A DNA stretch of 64,000 nucleotides from Methanoculleus frigidifontis. GTDB lineage: Archaea > Halobacteriota > Methanomicrobia > Methanomicrobiales > Methanoculleaceae. Below are positions 9,750-17,957 of this stretch, in pieces. Position 1 is the stretch's first letter, and each line of letters begins with the position of its first letter. The notes under the pieces were generated by a model. That model saw only the letters and a list, made by a program, of their open reading frames with translations, was not told the origin of the DNA and did no database searches. The translations under genes and the position numbers were made by a program. The DNA lies in NCBI RefSeq assembly GCF_030464345.1, contig NZ_VCYH01000001.1, forward strand, positions 248,001-312,000, read 5' to 3'.

Positions 9750-10688
9750 ATGAGGAAAAATGTGTTCTTAGCGGTATTTGCGGTCATTGTGCTGGGAATC
9801 ATCGTCGCAGGCGTCGGGCTGCCCTATCTGCACCAGGCAGCGCCGGGAACAGACGCCATCGGCATCCCTTCGACTCCGAATATCATCGGTTCATCCGGGC
9901 CGTACGTCCTTGCCGCGCCGTTTCCGGACGTGAACGACTCCTACCCGGTCTACCGGACGGTTCTCCCCGACACCAGCACCGAGGAGAAACGACGCATCGG
10001 CGATCTGTTTGGGGTATCGGAAGGCGTGGAAAAGCCTGAAAGAACCGATGGTAGGTTATATTATTACACGAACTCCGGGGCGTTCCAGTATATCATCCCG
10101 GCAAAGGCGTACCCCTATGCTACCGACAGGCAGCCAGACCTCCCGTCCGATGAAGAGGCTCGTGCGATTGCGACGACCTACCTGAAGGAGCGAGGCCTTT
10201 TTCCCGCCGACGTATACTTTGAGTATGTGAAAATCGGATCTTCATGTGAAAACAGAAGCCCGACCTCTGTCACGGTATATAACCTTACCAAACATGTGCA
10301 TTTCATAAAGAAAATTCAAGATCTTCGTGTGCATACCGCAGGTATTACAGTATCGATCGGAGAAAATGGCGAGGTGGTAGCTGTCTCGAATTCCCTCAGG
10401 GAGTTCGATCCGAAACCGGTCCGCGATGTGAAGATCATAACCCCGGAACAGGCATACCAGCGACTCTCTGCGGGGGACGTCATGATCCAACCGCTTCAAG
10501 AGGACTACGATAAAATCGTAGTGACCAACATCTCGCTCGGTTACTGGATGGAGACACAAACCGAGCCCCAAGAATATATTGTGCCGGTGTACGTCTTTTC
10601 ATGCAACGCAATGTGGGACGGCAAATCGGAAGAAGTCTTCCGATACGTACCGGCAGTCGATCCGACAGAGATGGAGGGCCTCACCTGA
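9750..10688 (+). CDS. Membrane-anchored secreted protein, PepSY/YycI-like
   Basis: 312 residues from the ATG at 9750, which follows GGAGG. One N-terminal hydrophobic helix (residues about 5-25) acts as a signal anchor, and the rest lies outside the cell. The C-terminal part contains HVHFIKKIQ, GITVSIGENGEVVAVSN and PEQAYQRL, a pattern like PepSY or YycI-type domains in which a beta sheet is followed by a helix that begins PEQA. The function is unknown. It is followed 77 bases later by a close paralog with near-identical N-terminus, so the pair arose by tandem duplication. Confidence 0.7.
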   Translation: MRKNVFLAVFAVIVLGIIVAGVGLPYLHQAAPGTDAIGIPSTPNIIGSSGPYVLAAPFPDVNDSYPVYRTVLPDTSTEEKRRIGDLFGVSEGVEKPERTDGRLYYYTNSGAFQYIIPAKAYPYATDRQPDLPSDEEARAIATTYLKERGLFPADVYFEYVKIGSSCENRSPTSVTVYNLTKHVHFIKKIQDLRVHTAGITVSIGENGEVVAVSNSLREFDPKPVRDVKIITPEQAYQRLSAGDVMIQPLQEDYDKIVVTNISLGYWMETQTEPQEYIVPVYVFSCNAMWDGKSEEVFRYVPAVDPTEMEGLT

Positions 10689-10765
10689 ATCATTTTTTAT
10701 CGCAGCCATGACGTTCGCCGCTTGAGTGGATGTCCGAGTGCCATGATGATTACGAGGGAAGAGCG

Positions 10766-11701
10766 ATGAGGAAAAATGTGTTCTTAGCGGTATTCGCGGT
10801 CATAGTGCTGGGTATCGTCGTCGCAGGCGTCGGGCTGCCCTATCTGCACCCGGCAGCGCCGGGAGCAGACACCATCGGCATCCTTTCGATTCCGAATATC
10901 GTCGGATCGTCCGGACCGTACGTCCTTGCCGCGCCGTTCCCGGACGTGAACGAGTCCTACCCGGTCTACCGGACCGTTCTCCCCGGCAATGGCACCGGGG
11001 AAAAACGGCGCCTCGACAATCTGTTCGGGGTATCGGGAGACGCGAAAACGCCCGAACCTTCCGCTGGAAGCGTGTACTATTACGTGAACTCCGGAGCGTT
11101 TCAGTACATTATCCCGGAAAAGGCGTACCCCTACACCACTCACCAGCAACCGGACATTCCGTCCGACGAAGAGACCCGTGCGATTGCGACGGCCTATCTG
11201 AAGGAGCGAGGTCTCCTTTCCGATGGCGTATACTTTGAGGATGTGAGTGTCGGATCTTCATGTGGAAGCATAGGCCCGACCGTCACGGAATATATTCTTA
11301 CCAAACATGTGCATTTCATAAAGAAAATTCAAGGCCTTCGTGTCTATAACGCAGGTATTACGGTATCGATCGGCGAAAACGGCGAGGTGGTAGCAGTCTC
11401 GAATTCCCTCAGGAAGTTCGATCCGAAACCGGTCCGCGATGTGAAGATCATAATGCCGGAGCAGGCATGCCAGCGGCTGTGCTCGGGGAACCTGACGAAA
11501 GATCCACTCCCATGGGAGTACGATAAAATCATGGTAACCGACATCTCGCTCGGGTACTGGATGGAGATACAAACAGAACCGCAGGAATATATCGCGCCGG
11601 TGTATGCGTTTTCGTGCACTGCCACCTGGAACGGCAAATCGGCAGAAGTCGTCCGATACGTACCGGCGGTCGATCCGGCAGAGATGGAGGGCCTCACCTG
11701 A
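10766..11701 (+). CDS. Tandem paralog of the PepSY-like secreted protein
   Basis: 311 residues, starting at an ATG preceded by GGAAGAG. The first 25 residues are almost identical to the preceding protein at both DNA and protein level, and similarity continues to the shared C-terminal PAVDP...EMEGLT. Divergence is greatest in the middle, at the variable loop after DLFGVS/NLFGVS and around the NLTK/ILTK region. It has one N-terminal membrane helix and an extracellular domain. The role is unknown. Confidence 0.68.
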   Translation: MRKNVFLAVFAVIVLGIVVAGVGLPYLHPAAPGADTIGILSIPNIVGSSGPYVLAAPFPDVNESYPVYRTVLPGNGTGEKRRLDNLFGVSGDAKTPEPSAGSVYYYVNSGAFQYIIPEKAYPYTTHQQPDIPSDEETRAIATAYLKERGLLSDGVYFEDVSVGSSCGSIGPTVTEYILTKHVHFIKKIQGLRVYNAGITVSIGENGEVVAVSNSLRKFDPKPVRDVKIIMPEQACQRLCSGNLTKDPLPWEYDKIMVTDISLGYWMEIQTEPQEYIAPVYAFSCTATWNGKSAEVVRYVPAVDPAEMEGLT

Positions 11702-12992: not shown

Positions 12993-13589
12993 TCACTTCC
13001 CCTTCCGTACACCCTTTCCGAGGAAGAACGGCGCCGGGCGCGGTGCTACGACCGGAAATGTCCCCTCATAGGCATTTCGGACGTCTTCGATGGAGTAGAA
13101 CGCCTTCGGGTTGTACTGGTGGACGGCATCCACGACGGCCGGGATGTTCTTGCGCTTGATGACGGTGAAGATGATCTTGCCTGGCCCGATCTTTCCCTGG
13201 GCGTCGATGACGGTCACCCCGTATCCCGATCCCCGGAGATGGCTGATGAGGTTGGTCGCGTCCCGCTGGGTGATGATCCGCACCAGGGTGAGCCCCATGG
13301 CGAGCCGTTCCTCAATGACCATGCCGATGTAGTTGCCGGCCGCAAAACCCCCCGCATATGCGAAGTAGTTGACCGGGTTCGTCACGTCCTGGAAGATCTG
13401 CCCGATCGCGACGATCCAGATGAAGACCTCGATGAATCCCAGCACCGGCGCGATCAGTTTCATGCCCCGCGAGATGAAGATGATCCGCATCGTGCCGACG
13501 GTGACGTCGCAGATCCGGGCGAAGAATATGGCTACCGGGAGAATTATGAGCGAGAGAAGCTCGGGATCGGTTGCCGGGATCGGGATCAT
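12993..13589 (-). CDS. UPF0316/DUF2179 membrane protein
   Basis: 198 residues. About three N-terminal membrane helices (residues 12-95) carry the family marker [13 protein letters not shown] cytoplasmic DUF2179 domain follows, with [14 protein letters not shown] and FTVIKRK. The family is widespread and of unknown function, sometimes linked to nucleotide or ion sensing. A TATA-like sequence near 13633-13645 on the minus strand would drive it. It is convergent with the propeller gene, with only 9 bases between the stop codons. Confidence 0.85.
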
Positions 13590-13737
13590 TGCTGATCAGG
13601 ATTACTCTCCCGGTGATTTAATTTTATCTGTGGGGTAAATATATTTCTCAGGATCAATAATTCATTTCCGGGCTTTTCCGGCTTTTTTCCGGATCCACGC
13701 CGGCACTGCTCTCCCCGGAGCGGCAAAAAATGGGTGC

Positions 13738-14049
13738 TTATGACCGGGAGGCCAGCTTCTCGATCTCTTCCTCGACCTCGGCCACGCCCTCCTGGTAGTA
13801 CTCACCCTCCTTCGGGTCGAGCTCCATGAGGAGGCGGTAGAACTCGCCGGCGTGGACCTTCTCTTCGTTCGCGATGTCGATGAGGACCTCTTTTGCGAGC
13901 GGGTCGTCGGTGGCGTCCGCAAGCTGCATGTAGAGCTGGATCGCCTCGAACTCCGCAGCCATGTTGTAGCGGATGGCGCGGACGAGTTCGTCCTTCGTCA
14001 GCTTGCGGTCGAGATTGTTTCCTGCAAAGGGATTTGCGAATTCGGGCAT
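13738..14049 (-). CDS. Small ferritin-like protein (encapsulin-type), copy 1
   Basis: 103 residues forming two predicted helices with the iron-binding pattern E...E in AAEFEAIQLY and EEKVHAGEF. This half-ferritin layout, with the N-terminal NPFAGNNLDRKLTKDE and the C-terminal E-rich tail, resembles the encapsulated ferritin-like domain fused to encapsulin in Pyrococcus, and would dimerise to make a ferroxidase centre. No encapsulin shell gene is in the window. A T-rich stretch after the stop may terminate transcription, and a minus-strand TATA lies near 14114-14124. A paralog lies at 15078. Confidence 0.82.
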   Translation of the reverse strand: MPEFANPFAGNNLDRKLTKDELVRAIRYNMAAEFEAIQLYMQLADATDDPLAKEVLIDIANEEKVHAGEFYRLLMELDPKEGEYYQEGVAEVEEEIEKLASRS

Positions 14050-14203
14050 GTTTCTGTTCCTCCTGTCGGGTCTGCAGCCGCATCAGCGGCTACAATGAGT
14101 GGTGTTTGTCAAAAGAGGATATAAGGGAGACGGTATTGCTCTACGGAGCCGCGGCAGGGGTCGGTTCGGGTGCGCCTGCGGCGGGGCGGTCATGTGCCTG
14201 CCC

Positions 14204-14593
14204 CTACCGGCCGGCCCGCGTGAGGAGGTCGTCGAGAGAGGCCGGCTGCTGCCGGCGTTTCATGTCCTGCCAGACCCTGCGCTGTTTGTGGAGCCAGAAG
14301 TCGAGACCTTCCGGGTCCTCTGCGTAGACGACGTGGTGGTGCTCGAGGATCCGGCCCCGTAAGTACCAGGGGATCTCGTCATAGACGACGATGTCGTACT
14401 GCGGCTCCGCGTTCAGGATGCTGGTGTAGACGGCGGTTCGGTCCGCATTGTCGTGCAGGATGAGGCAGAGGTCGGTATCAGACGTGCTATCCGCATAGCC
14501 GCACACCCTTGACCCGTAGAGCAGGATGCCGCGGACCGATCCCAGGACGCCACGGAATTGGTTTATGATTTCGTCTTCTGCTCTTTCAGCCAT
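14204..14593 (-). CDS. mntA: MntA-type nucleotidyltransferase antitoxin
   Basis: 129 residues with the minimal nucleotidyltransferase signature GSRVCGYADSTSDTDL (GSxxxG...SDxD) and a further aspartate in YDIVVYDE. MntA enzymes AMPylate the HepT RNase partner and so neutralise it. The gene starts inside the end of hepT (31-base overlap), the usual order for this module. The pair sits between two ferritin-like paralogs. Confidence 0.85.
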   Translation of the reverse strand: MAERAEDEIINQFRGVLGSVRGILLYGSRVCGYADSTSDTDLCLILHDNADRTAVYTSILNAEPQYDIVVYDEIPWYLRGRILEHHHVVYAEDPEGLDFWLHKQRRVWQDMKRRQQPASLDDLLTRAGR

Positions 14594-14991
14594 GTCGTTA
14601 TCTCCTGTGCGAACGTCCGCAGCACGGGGAGCAGCCGGTGCATGGCGGTGTAAGCGATTGTATCGTCGACTCCGTCGTACTCGTGGACGAGCCGGTTTCG
14701 AAGTCCGTTTGCGGTCTTTGCGTCCCGGCCGGTCTCCGGCGTGAGAATCCCGAGCCTGACGAGTTCGTCGATGGTGCTGTAGTCGTCCTGTGCCGACGCA
14801 TGCATGCTGCGCCGCGCCAGGGCACCGATGTCCATCATGATCTCGACTGCTTCCTGCAGCTCCTTGTAGAGAGCCTTTCGGAGAATTCGGTCGTGCAGCA
14901 TCTCGTCGGAGATATGCTGCTCGATGAATTCGCTGCGGTCGATGAGCATCTCTATCTTCTGGACGATGCGCTCCTCGGGTCCGGGCATCAT
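14563..14991 (-). CDS. hepT: HepT-like toxin RNase (DUF86)
   Basis: 142 residues, all helical by composition. The HEPN active-site motif RNRLVHEY (RN-x3-H with the adjacent tyrosine targeted by AMPylation) is near residue 105. HepT toxins cleave RNA and are controlled by the MntA nucleotidyltransferase encoded by the overlapping downstream gene. Two consecutive ATG codons begin the frame, so the start is certain within one codon. The pair is a type VII toxin-antitoxin system. Confidence 0.87.
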   Translation of the reverse strand: MMPGPEERIVQKIEMLIDRSEFIEQHISDEMLHDRILRKALYKELQEAVEIMMDIGALARRSMHASAQDDYSTIDELVRLGILTPETGRDAKTANGLRNRLVHEYDGVDDTIAYTAMHRLLPVLRTFAQEITTWLKEQKTKS

Positions 14992-15077
14992 TGGTTGAGG
15001 TATTCGCTGTCCCGACTATTCAAACCGATCGCCCGGCATGCCGGCGCAGGGTCTGCCGTGAAAAAACAGGCGGCGGG

Positions 15078-15392
15078 TTACTTCCCGCCCTTTTTGACTT
15101 CTTCGATCATCTCTTCGACTTCTTTGTGGCCGTGGTCGTAGTAGTCCATCTCCTCCGGCGCAAGTTCGCGGAGCAGGCGCAGGAACTCGCCGGCGTGCTC
15201 TTTCTCTTCGTTCGCCACGTCGACCATCACCTTTCTGACGAGTGCGTTGTCCGTGGACTCGGCGATCTGCATGTAGAGCTGGATCGCCTCGTACTCGGCG
15301 GCGACAGAGAAGCGGATCGCACGCAGGATCTCGCCGTGGGTCAGCTTGCGGCCGAGGTTGTTCCCGGCAAAGGGGTTGGCAAATTCGGGCAT
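15078..15392 (-). CDS. Small ferritin-like protein (encapsulin-type), copy 2
   Basis: 104 residues from an ATG at 15392 that follows GGAGGAAA. It shares the exact N-terminus MPEFANPFAGNNL with copy 1 and keeps the metal-binding glutamates and histidine in AAEYEAIQLY and EEKEHAGEF. The C-terminal tail differs and ends in lysines. The two copies are separated by the HepT/MntA pair, so either the toxin module was inserted between tandem duplicates or the duplication spanned it. It is expected to bind iron as a multimer. Confidence 0.82.
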   Translation of the reverse strand: MPEFANPFAGNNLGRKLTHGEILRAIRFSVAAEYEAIQLYMQIAESTDNALVRKVMVDVANEEKEHAGEFLRLLRELAPEEMDYYDHGHKEVEEMIEEVKKGGK

Positions 15393-15514: not shown

Positions 15515-15739
15515 TCAGCGCCCTTCGTCGGATCGGCGGGTTTCACTATCTGTGACCCGTATTTCAATGCACCCGCTGCCGGTGCAGCCCTGCAGATCCA
15601 GGTAGGCCTCTATCGCCTCTCTGGTGCGGGAAGAGAGCTCATCCAGACTCTTTGCCTGGGTATGGCATCCCGGGAGCGACGGAATGGTCGCGACGAAGTA
15701 GCCGTCTTCGTCCTTCTCGACAAAAACGTTGTATTTCAT
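15515..15739 (-). CDS. HicB-like antitoxin, solitary
   Basis: 74 residues of the HicB/UPF0150 fold: MKYNVFVEKDEDGYFVATIPSLPG at the start gives the RNase-H-like sheet, followed by a helix with LDELSSRTREAIEAYL. HicB proteins neutralise the HicA mRNA interferase. No HicA frame is seen on either side, so this is either an orphan antitoxin or a regulator acting with a distant partner. Confidence 0.72.
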   Translation of the reverse strand: MKYNVFVEKDEDGYFVATIPSLPGCHTQAKSLDELSSRTREAIEAYLDLQGCTGSGCIEIRVTDSETRRSDEGR

Positions 15740-15879
15740 TTCTTCCAGAGCCTCTTCACAGATATATTCCTGCGGCTATCCTATCAATCTTCCCGAAGCG
15801 TGGTATGCTGGAGATGCCCTTCCACACTCAGAGGGCCGGGATGACGGGTTGCAGAGCGGCACGATGCCGCCATCCCCCT

Positions 15880-16077
15880 TTACAAATGGCTCCACGCCGC
15901 ATCCTCCTCGGGCGTCAGCCAGTCCTTCCCCAGCGCAGACTCGCTGGCTATGGCGGCCTTGCGGGTGTCCCTGCGGTGCCGGGTTTTGAGGAACCGGATG
16001 AAGTCGAGAACCTCCTCGCATGCCTGTTCGGGCAGACCGTTCAGTTCGGTAGTTATCTGCTCTTTTACCTGACTCAT
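15880..16077 (-). CDS. Small DUF2281-like antitoxin
   Basis: 65 residues. The pattern ITTELNGLPEQACEEVLDFIRFLK is typical of DUF2281 antitoxins, in which a short DNA-binding helix precedes a toxin-wrapping tail (here ALGKDWLTPEEDAAW). No PIN or RelE toxin follows it; the next gene downstream is the HicB-like antitoxin. It is probably an orphan. Confidence 0.62.
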   Translation of the reverse strand: MSQVKEQITTELNGLPEQACEEVLDFIRFLKTRHRRDTRKAAIASESALGKDWLTPEEDAAWSHL

Positions 16078-16133
16078 GCCGTCTCTCCCATACGTGCGTT
16101 ACCGTGACTACAAATCCCTGCGGTGGATAGCCC

Positions 16134-16421
16134 TCATTGGTTCTCGTGAAAAATAATGGTATCGCCGGCTGTTGCACCCAAGGCTATGGCAGGTCGCCGG
16201 TTCCAATTCCCGGAAACCCTTTTGAACGGCCGGCATTGGCCGGCATGCATGTCGGCGATGCTCTCCTCGATCCTCTGCAGTGTCTCCTCGCTCAAGGGCT
16301 CCGGATCGTATGCAGCGTCCAGGAGACGGCCGACCACGTCGTCGTAGCTCTCCTGCGGGTGCACCTTCTCGGCATCCGGGCGGGCTTTTGTCTCCCGGCG
16401 GAGCCGGATCGTCGTTGCCAT
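16134..16421 (-). pseudogene. Decayed VapB-type antitoxin
   Basis: From ATG 16421 the frame reads as a typical archaeal antitoxin: ATTIRLRRETKARPD, then ESYDDVVGRLLDAA and PLSEETLQRIEESIADM. After KRVSGN the sequence loses family character, while a shifted frame at the same place reads FREL, as expected for the normal ending. This indicates a small indel and loss of the C-terminus. No toxin gene follows. An arginine-proline substitution in KARPD is also unusual for this family. Confidence 0.55.
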
Positions 16422-16501
16422 GGATCTCTCTGCGAGGCCGTGGAACATGACCTTTTCTCCTGGCCTACGCCGTCATCGACGGCCGGGACGGCACGGAGTG
16501 C

Positions 16502-16660
16502 ATGGACGCGGCGATCTGGGACTACTGTACCGCCCGTCTGCGGGAGGAGGCGGAACCCCTGTCCGTTGCGACGGCCGATACCGACGCCTGGGTTGTCGGC
16601 GAAGCCTCGTCGGACCCTGATGCGGAGCAGACGTACAGAACTTTCGGAGCGGGGGTGTGA
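16502..16660 (+). CDS. Short ORF upstream of the DUF3467 gene
   Basis: 52 residues from ATG 16502 (MDAAIWDYC...). The same frame is open from 16451 without a standard start, so the gene may have lost its 5' end, possibly when the antitoxin on the opposite strand decayed. Its composition is protein-like and its stop lies 3 bases before the next start. Function unrecognised. Confidence 0.35.
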   Translation: MDAAIWDYCTARLREEAEPLSVATADTDAWVVGEASSDPDAEQTYRTFGAGV

Positions 16661-16663
16661 CGG

Positions 16664-17014
16664 TTGGCAGAGGAGAAGCGAGAGCGGAAGGGGCCGGGTG
16701 CGATCGACCTTCGGGAGCGGTACCGGTTCGAGCCGGAAGAACTGCAGCCCGATATCACGCAGACCGCCTACTCGAACCTTGCGTACGTCCAGGTGACGCA
16801 CCGCGACGTCTTTATCGACTTTCTGGAGATGCCCGGCCTGCGCCGGGACGACCGGGTGTTCGTGAAGGGCACGCGCATCTCTATGTCGCACGCTGCCGCA
16901 CAGCGGCTTGCCGAAGCTCTGGCCGGGATTCTCGAAAAAGTGCATACGGAGGACGGCATGGAGCAGTACGTTCCGAAGGGTGCGAGGCGGAAACCCGGGG
17001 ACGATTCGGCCTGA
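16664..17014 (+). CDS. DUF3467 protein
   Basis: 116 residues, starting at TTG 16664. The conserved DUF3467 core is visible: QTAYSNLAYVQVTHRDVFIDFLEMPG, then a basic strand and the helix SMSHAAAQRLAEALAGILEKV. Family members are short cytosolic proteins of unknown function, common in bacteria and some methanogens. A weak AGGAGAAG lies just inside the frame rather than before it, so the start is uncertain; homologs usually begin near the IDLRERYRF segment. Confidence 0.7.
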   Translation: MAEEKRERKGPGAIDLRERYRFEPEELQPDITQTAYSNLAYVQVTHRDVFIDFLEMPGLRRDDRVFVKGTRISMSHAAAQRLAEALAGILEKVHTEDGMEQYVPKGARRKPGDDSA

Positions 17015-17564
17015 CACTGTGCCGAAGACCTGCCTCTCGTGCTGCACGTCCGGCACGGATGGCGCCCTTACGCGCCGGATGGCGCCCTTACGCGCCCGGC
17101 CGGTGGGCGGGCGCCATGCTTCATCGATGAGGAGTGTGGAGGCCACGGATCGAAGACCGCGAACGTTCCCCGGCTCCTGATGCGATCCATGTCCCGGGTT
17201 AACCGTTGGTTCTTTTCGGTCTCGACACGTTCGCCCTGCAGAACATCGAACGACTGGTCGGGGTGCTGCACTGCGATGGCTTTTTCTGACGGCTCTTCTG
17301 GCACCGGGACGAACCCGGGCGTCGTCATTTTGGGAGCATGTGTGCTGAAGGTGTATCTATGCTCGGTCATGATGCTGCAGGGTGCGATACGTTCTGCGCT
17401 GAAGATGCAGGGAGCACCCTGAGAGCAGCCGGCCGCCGTTCCGGTGCGAAGGACGCTACCACCCCCGGCCCTGCACTCCGGGCGTGACGCTGGCAGCACT
17501 TTCAGCCGGGTTTTCAGCATCTGCTGCCCGTTGTCGTCAACCATCACTTATGCCGGCCGATAGA
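17015..17564. other. Region without a confident gene
   Basis: About 550 bases between the DUF3467 gene and the pilin. Near 17060-17097 a 20-base unit (CGGATGGCGCCCTTACGCGC) is repeated twice in tandem. A minus-strand open frame (about 17130-17370) has a protein-like middle with VPVPEEPSEKAIAV but no start signal or family match, so it may be a gene remnant. Confidence 0.35.
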
Positions 17565-17957
17565 TCAGATCGTTCTGTCGAGGAGCACCTGCTCGGTCCC
17601 GTCGTAGAACCTCCCGACGACGACGACCCGGTCGGGGCCGGCGGTTCCATAGGTGTTGACGGCGGTGGAGCCGGGTTCGGTACCGAGGGTGACGTTGTGG
17701 TGAACCCCGGGCGTCGTCCCGCCGACCCAGCACGTAATCTCCTGGATCTCGTCGAACCCGGCGCCGCCGTGGTTCGTGAAGGTGATGTCTGTCCCCGACC
17801 GCTCGGCGGTGACGGCCGTCGCCCCGAACCCCGGTATCCACGCAAGCCCGAAGATGAGCGAGGCGATGATCGCCGCGATGATGACGGTGATGGCGACCAT
17901 GAGCACGGTGCTGATGACTTCGGAGACGGCGGTGTCGTGCATACCTGATCTGGTCAT
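17565..17957 (-). CDS. Archaeal type IV pilin-like protein
   Basis: 130 residues from ATG 17957. The class III signal peptide is DTAVSEVISTVLMVAITV: a short basic leader, then the AVSEV box and a long hydrophobic helix. An extracellular domain of beta strands follows, with ERSGTDITFTNHGG, and the protein ends in RVVVVGRFYDGTEQVLLD. Similar proteins are pilins or adhesins processed by a prepilin peptidase (PibD/EppA), which is not in the window. Divergent from a second pilin at 18234 across about 280 bases. Confidence 0.8.
   Translation of the reverse strand: MTRSGMHDTAVSEVISTVLMVAITVIIAAIIASLIFGLAWIPGFGATAVTAERSGTDITFTNHGGAGFDEIQEITCWVGGTTPGVHHNVTLGTEPGSTAVNTYGTAGPDRVVVVGRFYDGTEQVLLDRTI

What the first reader, a model, noticed from the sequence alone, without database searches (positions are those of the whole stretch)
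13738..15392. Encapsulin-type half-ferritins without a shell, flanking a HepT/MntA module
Two small ferritin-like paralogs share an identical 13-residue N-terminus and keep E...EE..H, matching the cargo domain of archaeal encapsulins. No encapsulin gene is present. The toxin-antitoxin pair sits exactly between them. Either the proteins work as free iron stores or target a shell encoded elsewhere, and the toxin module may stabilise the duplication.
Basis: partly seen in the sequence, partly recalled or inferred. Interest (0 to 1): 0.5.

Follow-up and report, generated by a model that had tools for sequence, protein, structure and literature searches.

The report
Half-ferritins that lost their shell
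Two small iron-oxidising proteins of a kind usually locked inside a virus-like protein shell occur here, in a probable methane-making archaeon, with no shell gene found and no shell-docking tag, and in two relatives the shell gene is seen decaying, so these proteins probably work free in the cell.

Summary
Observation confirmed: two EncFtn-type half-ferritins (13738-14049 "A" and 15078-15392 "B", both minus) flank hepT-mntA.

What is there: free-standing encapsulated-ferritin homologues. The genome (99% complete) has no detectable family-1 encapsulin. In 150 genomes of the order, EncFtn matches in 124 and encapsulin in 28. All 26 EncFtns beside an intact shell gene end in a T[IV]G[SA][LM][KR] cargo-loading peptide; none of 109 shell-less ones shows it. 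Ferroxidase residues are invariant in both sets. In two genomes the shell gene is broken and a stop codon ends EncFtn just before a decayed loading peptide, with the core open: escape from the shell caught in progress. Shell-less genes often carry oligo-T ends (59 of 107, against 0 of 26).

The "identical N-terminus" is a family-wide motif; A and B are old paralogues. hepT-mntA is an old, selected neighbour of B in this family, but near full length at only 9 of 30 B loci, and a same-genus genome keeps A and B without it; so it does not stabilise the pair.

Likely function: a soluble ferroxidase ring (inferred), not an iron store; the genome has ferritin-like and Dps genes. Shell-less EncFtn relatives are in print (Non-EncFtn, s-FLP).

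The parts
13738..14049 (-). EncFtn-like half-ferritin, copy A (103 aa), no cargo-loading peptide; probably its own promoter and oligo-T end
15078..15392 (-). EncFtn-like half-ferritin, copy B (104 aa), the type found in most genomes of the window's family; no cargo-loading peptide
14563..14991 (-). hepT, HEPN RNase toxin of a type VII TA pair; RNRLVHEY fits Rx4HxY (motif recalled)
14204..14593 (-). mntA-like nucleotidyltransferase antitoxin, overlaps hepT by 31 bp; GSx10DxD present (motif recalled)
15061..15089 (-). hairpin over B's stop codon (15089-15072) followed by T6 (15066-15061): probable terminator between B and hepT
13725..13730 (-). T6 run 7 nt after A's stop codon: probable archaeal terminator
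14117..14127 (-). TATA-like CTTATATC about 70 nt before A's ATG, kept in the same-genus genome G080: probable promoter of A, separate from the TA pair (read by eye)
12993..13589 (-). DUF5698/DUF2179 protein; also lies just downstream of 5 of the 10 other A-type copies of the family that I examined; function not established

Best explanation
A and B are free-standing encapsulated-ferritin (EncFtn) proteins: two-helix half-ferritins that pair face to face to build a di-iron ferroxidase centre, most likely in the open ten-subunit ring known for the family, working in the cytosol because the organism has neither a detectable encapsulin shell nor a cargo-loading peptide on the protein. Most likely job: a soluble ferroxidase/oxidase ring that turns over Fe2+ with O2 or peroxide during oxidative exposure of an anaerobe and passes the iron on to the separate ferritin-like protein and Dps. 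Shown here: family identity, predicted fold (of A), intact iron ligands, absence of a detectable shell and of the loading peptide, strict shell/peptide association in the order, two loci with a dead shell gene and a cut-off peptide, transcription signals of single genes. Inferred: ring assembly, the reaction, the hand-over of iron. hepT-mntA is an old neighbour of copy B, probably transcribed apart from it in this genome (inferred from the oligo-T run), and is not needed for either ferritin gene to persist.
For: Family and fold. No shell in own genome. Order survey: EncFtn match in 124 of 150 genomes, PF04454 in 28 of 150. Loading peptide in 26 of 26 EncFtns beside an intact shell and 0 of 109 without (one of these, L123, runs off its contig, so its tail is unseen), 0 of 2 beside a broken shell; E33, E35, Y40, E63, H66 invariant in all 135 of the two main sets. 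Dead shells: L124 (G053, 99% complete) and L131 (G050, 62% complete) keep an open EncFtn core ending at 103 and 101 aa, with a decayed loading peptide in frame after the stop and a fragmented shell gene. Oligo-T within 60 nt after the stop: 59 of 107 shell-less, 0 of 26 shell-linked, 284 of 4360 random windows. Ferritin-like gene and Arch_DPS elsewhere in the genome. dN/dS of B-type genes median 0.133 over 440 pairs.
Against: No biochemistry: ferroxidase activity, oligomer and partner are not tested. In He 2016 an EncFtn without its shell aggregated when iron was added (passage), a problem for a free bulk ferroxidase. A second metal site is altered: the residue that I align with R. rubrum Glu31 is Ala in 109 of 109 shell-less and 9 of 26 shell-linked proteins. 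The shell/peptide association is strongly clustered on the tree: only 3-4 independent pairs, sign test p 0.25, and one clade of all shell-less proteins is not rejected (AU p 0.06). With bacterial relatives added, the direction of change for the main shell-less group is open (7 changes, many unresolved forks), and no shell remnant lies at its loci (0 of 107). Searches for PF19307 and PF08967 were empty in own genome, but no control rang.
Confidence: 0.6

Rival explanations
1. A and B are cargo of an encapsulin encoded elsewhere (in trans) or of a shell too divergent to detect.
For: Eren 2024 (PMC11202242, section 3 read) notes that tail-less s-FLPs could in theory still be encapsulated; the PF19307 and PF08967 searches had no ringing control.
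Against: No PF04454 hit (controls rang), no PF05065 hit (controls rang), no match to an order shell protein at E <= 10 (no control). In the 150 genomes every intact shell lies beside an EncFtn that has the peptide, and no shell-less EncFtn shows it.
Confidence: 0.05
2. They are free iron stores.
For: Intact iron ligands; a published EncFtn decamer binds up to 48 iron ions (PMC5012862, passage).
Against: He 2016: EncFtn oxidises but cannot mineralise iron without the shell (abstract and passages). The genome has a ferritin-like gene and an archaeal Dps.
Confidence: 0.1
3. The half-ferritin ring has been repurposed as another di-metal enzyme (peroxide or NO reductase-like, or a metallochaperone).
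For: Strict conservation of the di-iron site without a store; best Pfam family is Rubrerythrin, over its cut-off; the residue aligned with the entry-site Glu31 is Ala in all 109 shell-less forms.
Against: The protein is too short for a rubredoxin domain, and no fixed partner gene was seen nearby (capped list). The catalytic ligands are those of the ferroxidase.
Confidence: 0.25
4. hepT-mntA between the copies stabilises the ferritin duplication.
For: The TA pair sits exactly between A and B here; a hepT-mntA homologue follows B in several other genomes of the family, with dN/dS medians 0.165 and 0.18.
Against: G080 has A and B 266 bp apart with no TA. G139 keeps two copies around a hepT/mntA in pieces, though a distant full-length HepT-like frame is there too. 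Both genes near full length at only 9 of 30 B loci with enough downstream sequence, window included, while B persists.
Confidence: 0.03

Closest known systems
Encapsulated ferritin (EncFtn / FLP-TP: R. rubrum Rru_A0973, H. ochraceum, M. xanthus EncB/EncC)
   Same: Two-helix half-ferritin, same iron ligands (E32, Y39, E62, H65 in R. rubrum numbering correspond by my alignment to E33, Y40, E63, H66); the predicted fold of A matches 7s8t, 5da5, 5n5f
   Different: No shell gene found in the genome, no C-terminal disordered tail or loading peptide; the predicted last helix (80-102 of 103) runs almost to the C-terminus
P. furiosus fusion EncFtn (PFC_05175; PDB 5n5e, 2e0z)
   Same: Closest solved structure by sequence and by predicted fold
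   Different: There the domain is fused to its encapsulin; here it is a separate protein and no encapsulin was found
s-FLP (Eren 2024) / Non-EncFtn (He 2016), e.g. N. europaea NE0167, PDB 3k6c
   Same: Short half-ferritin without targeting peptide; the same kind of protein
   Different: Only about 22% identical to 3k6c; in archaea; absence of a shell from whole genomes and shell/peptide decay are shown here, whereas for s-FLPs it was stated to be unclear whether the short tail holds a binding sequence
HepT-MntA type VII toxin-antitoxin
   Same: Profile matches and catalytic motifs
   Different: MntA scores below the NCBIfam cut-off; a long-kept neighbour of an EncFtn gene in this family, a linkage for which I saw nothing in the one listing searched

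Membership tests
EncFtn-like half-ferritin | Sequence profile above curated cut-off | tested here: met
   NF058679 109.4 and 101.3 bits, cut-off 90. PF22277: B 31.6 (met), A 26.5 against 27 (just missed). The narrower TIGR04535 (82.6 and 87.4, cut-off 125) is not met
EncFtn-like half-ferritin | Ferroxidase ligands E, Y, E, H on two helices | tested here: met
   E33, Y40, E63, H66 invariant in 109 of 109 shell-less and 26 of 26 shell-linked; ligand roles from PMC5012862 passages
EncFtn-like half-ferritin | Two-helix fold | tested here: met
   A only: mean pLDDT 91; best PDB match 5n5e, TM 0.78; a prediction, not a structure
EncFtn-like half-ferritin | D5 decamer and ferroxidase activity | not testable with these tools
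   needs purified protein
Encapsulin nanocompartment system (family 1, Flp cargo) | Encapsulin shell gene | tested here: not met
   no PF04454 in own genome, controls rang
Encapsulin nanocompartment system (family 1, Flp cargo) | Cargo-loading peptide on the ferritin | tested here: not met
   absent in A and B; present in 26 of 26 shell-linked relatives of the order
s-FLP / Non-EncFtn | Short EncFtn relative without targeting peptide | tested here: met
   103 and 104 aa, no tail
s-FLP / Non-EncFtn | Close kin of the example NE0167 | tested here: not met
   22% identity, Foldseek E 0.039, profile E 1.7e-5: same fold, distant; no tree with it was built
HepT-MntA TA | HepT profile and Rx4HxY | tested here: met
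   65.9 bits, cut-off 60; RNRLVHEY
HepT-MntA TA | MntA profile and GSx10DxD | tested here: inconclusive
   38.2 bits against cut-off 60; motif present; Pfam Polbeta over its cut-off

The most novel reading that the evidence does not exclude
The EncFtn ring is a stand-alone enzyme in its own right, and the encapsulin shell is an optional addition that has been gained and lost repeatedly: the shell-less form is common through anaerobic archaea and bacteria, and shell loss leaves the ferroxidase core open while the loading peptide and the shell gene decay. In this family the ring gene also became a long-term neighbour of a HepT-MntA pair, which might respond to the same iron or redox stress.
Probability: 0.45. 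Interest if true: 0.65.

Novelty: new variant of a known kind. Interest (0 to 1): 0.45.

Why it matters
EncFtn was reported to have an absolute requirement for compartmentalisation (He 2016, passage), and the 2024 review leaves open whether tail-less forms are encapsulated. In a sample of 150 genomes of one order, 96 have an EncFtn match and no shell hit, 26 have EncFtn beside an intact shell, and two have a dying shell. This gives matched relatives in which one can ask what the ring does without its shell and what changes when the shell is lost. Shell-less relatives also turned up in many anaerobes, so if free rings are active, a share of proteins annotated as encapsulin cargo are not cargo.

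Tried and rejected
Recent duplication read from the shared N-terminus: rejected, the N-terminus is family-wide and A and B are old paralogues. TA inserted only in this genome: my first reading; rejected after one search showed hepT-mntA beside B in other genera of the family, so its absence in G080 is more likely a deletion. Shell remnants beside the shell-less genes of the order: none (0 of 107 loci, flanks up to about 2 kb, some cut by contig ends); decayed peptides after the stop: 111 tails tested, one match, in L131; the L124 vestige was too decayed for the pattern and was read by eye. One origin of all shell-less forms: not rejected by the AU test (p 0.06), so I rely on the two dead loci for direction. 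One search used a peptide pattern that missed GIGSLK; the printed tails were then read by eye. PF19307, PF08967 and the direct shell search had no ringing control and count as weak. Rows dropped: L023 (leading N) and L123 (cut by contig end) from the tree (135 of 137 used); B loci L070, L092, L123 from the TA count for lack of downstream sequence; near-identical rows from the tree. G042 counts as an EncFtn match on a 26-residue hit only and is not among the 123 genomes.

Full report
Observation. A and B are EncFtn-type half-ferritins by profile, by solved relatives (P. furiosus EncFtn, E 2.1e-16 and 1.2e-15), by the predicted fold of A (mean pLDDT 91, best PDB match 5n5e) and by the iron ligands. 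They are the only two copies found in the genome (E <= 1). PF22277 (EncFtn-like) is just missed by A (26.5 against 27) and met by B (31.6); Rubrerythrin (PF02915) is over its cut-off for both. The narrower TIGR04535 cut-off is missed by both.

No shell. Own genome (3.17 Mb, 30 contigs, 98.99% complete): no PF04454 and no PF05065, both with ringing controls; PF19307 and PF08967 also empty but without a ringing control; no match to an order shell at E <= 10 (no control). It does have a ferritin-like gene (well over the PF00210 cut-off, below the NCBIfam non-heme-ferritin equivalog cut-off) and an archaeal Dps over its cut-off.

Order survey. Of 150 genomes sampled from the order, 124 have an EncFtn match (E <= 0.001) and 28 a PF04454 match; all 28 lie in two families (f3, f5) and all are among the 124. 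I extracted 137 EncFtns from 123 genomes (the 124th, G042, has only a 26-residue match). Beside an intact shell gene: 26 of 26 end in T[IV]G[SA][LM][KR] and are 118-132 aa. Without a shell: 0 of 109; 104 of these are 99-105 aa, three have longer lysine-rich tails (L029, L120, L122), one is 107 aa, and one (L123) is cut by a contig end. Beside a broken shell: 0 of 2. Positions E33, E35, Y40, E62, E63 and H66 are invariant in both sets. The targeting peptide described in print is of this kind (PMC11202242, section 3).

Escape caught in progress. In L124 (genome G053, 99% complete) and L131 (G050, 62% complete) the shell gene is a string of fragments, EncFtn ends at 103 and 101 aa, and a decayed loading peptide can be read in frame just after that stop (in L124 by eye). 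The EncFtn core is open in both. Neither genome has another shell match, though G050 is too incomplete for that to mean much, and sequencing error cannot be excluded there. L127 (G117) is a third shell-less case nested among shell-linked proteins, without remnants. These argue that, at least here, the change went from shell to free, with the core kept. For the large shell-less clade (106 rows, SH-aLRT 98) there are no remnants (0 of 107 shell-less loci) and the direction is not settled. The statistics are modest: 3-4 independent contrasts, all in the expected direction, p 0.25; one clade of all shell-less forms has AU p 0.06.

Beyond the order. A scan of named genomes kept the best 80 of 520 confirmed relatives (a capped sample, biased towards proteins like the query): 73 have no shell in the DNA held (up to 3 kb each side), 7 do; by eye on the printed tails, 5 of the 7 end in GIGSLK and none of the 73 does. 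They include Methanothrix, Thermoanaerobacter, Desulfosporosinus, Coprothermobacter, Desulfovibrio and many metagenome bins. In a joint tree of 130 rows the shell state changes at least 7 times and the main shell-less group of the order is mixed with bacterial and other archaeal rows (half the forks are open). In 294 genomes of the phylum, the 14 genomes outside the order with a strong match (E <= 1e-40) have no PF04454 hit.

Single genes. A T5 run lies within 60 nt after the stop in 59 of 107 shell-less genes with enough sequence, 0 of 26 shell-linked and 284 of 4360 random windows. In the window both copies are followed by T6; a hairpin-plus-T site overlaps B's end (where 4 such sites were found against 2.4 expected, so the T run rather than the hairpin is the argument). 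A has its own TATA-like box, kept in G080 (by eye).

The toxin-antitoxin pair. G080 (same genus) has B and A 266 bp apart, with about 152 bp where the window has 913 bp holding hepT-mntA. But hepT-mntA homologues (about 60% identical) lie just after B in other genera of the family. Of 30 B loci with enough downstream sequence (29 plus the window) 10 have a near-full hepT and 9 have both genes near full length; three more have pieces (G052, G028, and a weak 45-aa match in G132). dN/dS medians: HepT 0.165 (34 pairs), MntA 0.18 (36 pairs), B 0.133 (440 pairs). DUF5698 follows A-type or B-type copies in several genomes of the family, so the window's order B-hepT-mntA-A-DUF5698 may be old; G139 has two EncFtns (both in A's clade) around a hepT/mntA in pieces plus a distant full-length HepT-like frame, then DUF5698. 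The TA pair is therefore an old, selected, often-lost neighbour. It does not hold the ferritin pair together. Related hepT genes also occur away from EncFtn in some genomes.

Literature. He 2016 (PMC5012862; [quoted passage not shown] Eren 2024 (PMC11202242; section 3 and passages) names s-FLPs, says they are mainly bacterial, and leaves their encapsulation unclear. Andreas and Giessen 2021 (PMC8346489; passages) surveys encapsulin systems; I saw no orphan cargo in the passages shown. I did not find methanogen shell-less EncFtns in print: searches (listings only for the papers not named above; no preprints and few subscription papers are held).

Mechanism. Shown: EncFtn core with intact ligands, no detectable shell, no loading peptide, purifying selection on B-type genes. 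Inferred: iron-induced ring of ten, Fe2+ oxidation with O2 or peroxide in an anaerobe, iron passed to ferritin/Dps. The weak point is the reported iron-induced aggregation of a shell-less EncFtn; a lower-throughput or different di-metal role remains possible (rival 3). Verdict: a free half-ferritin of a kind already named, in a lineage where I found it undescribed, and with the loss of encapsulation unusually well documented.

Noticed in passing
window 15794-17565: About 1.4 kb more here than at the matching place in same-genus G080 (about 342 bp there): small TA-like or unknown genes (DUF2281 match below cut-off at 15880-16077, a DUF3467 protein at 16664-17014), so this spot looks like a collector of small modules.
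   Followed up: partly
window 15515-15739: HicB-like antitoxin gene upstream of B, with no HicA noticed beside it (not searched for); a 68% identical copy is in G080.
   Followed up: partly
L120 (G127), L122 (G087), L170: Shell-less EncFtns with long Lys/Ala/Pro-rich C-terminal tails (117-168 aa in all), unlike a loading peptide; perhaps nucleic-acid binding (guess).
   Followed up: no
L164 (Pelobacter sp.) and L174: EncFtn beside a shell gene but without a recognisable loading peptide (tails ending NIYGK and LGLQDK).
   Followed up: no
tree: Copy A groups with proteins of family f6, genus g10 (75-81% identical; Methanocalculus-like) more closely than with the A-type copies of its own family's main genus (69-72%): possible gene transfer between families.
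   Followed up: partly
window 9750-10688 and 10730-11701: Two neighbouring similar proteins (about 310-320 aa) whose best match in G080 is the same gene (60-66%): probably a local duplication.
   Followed up: no
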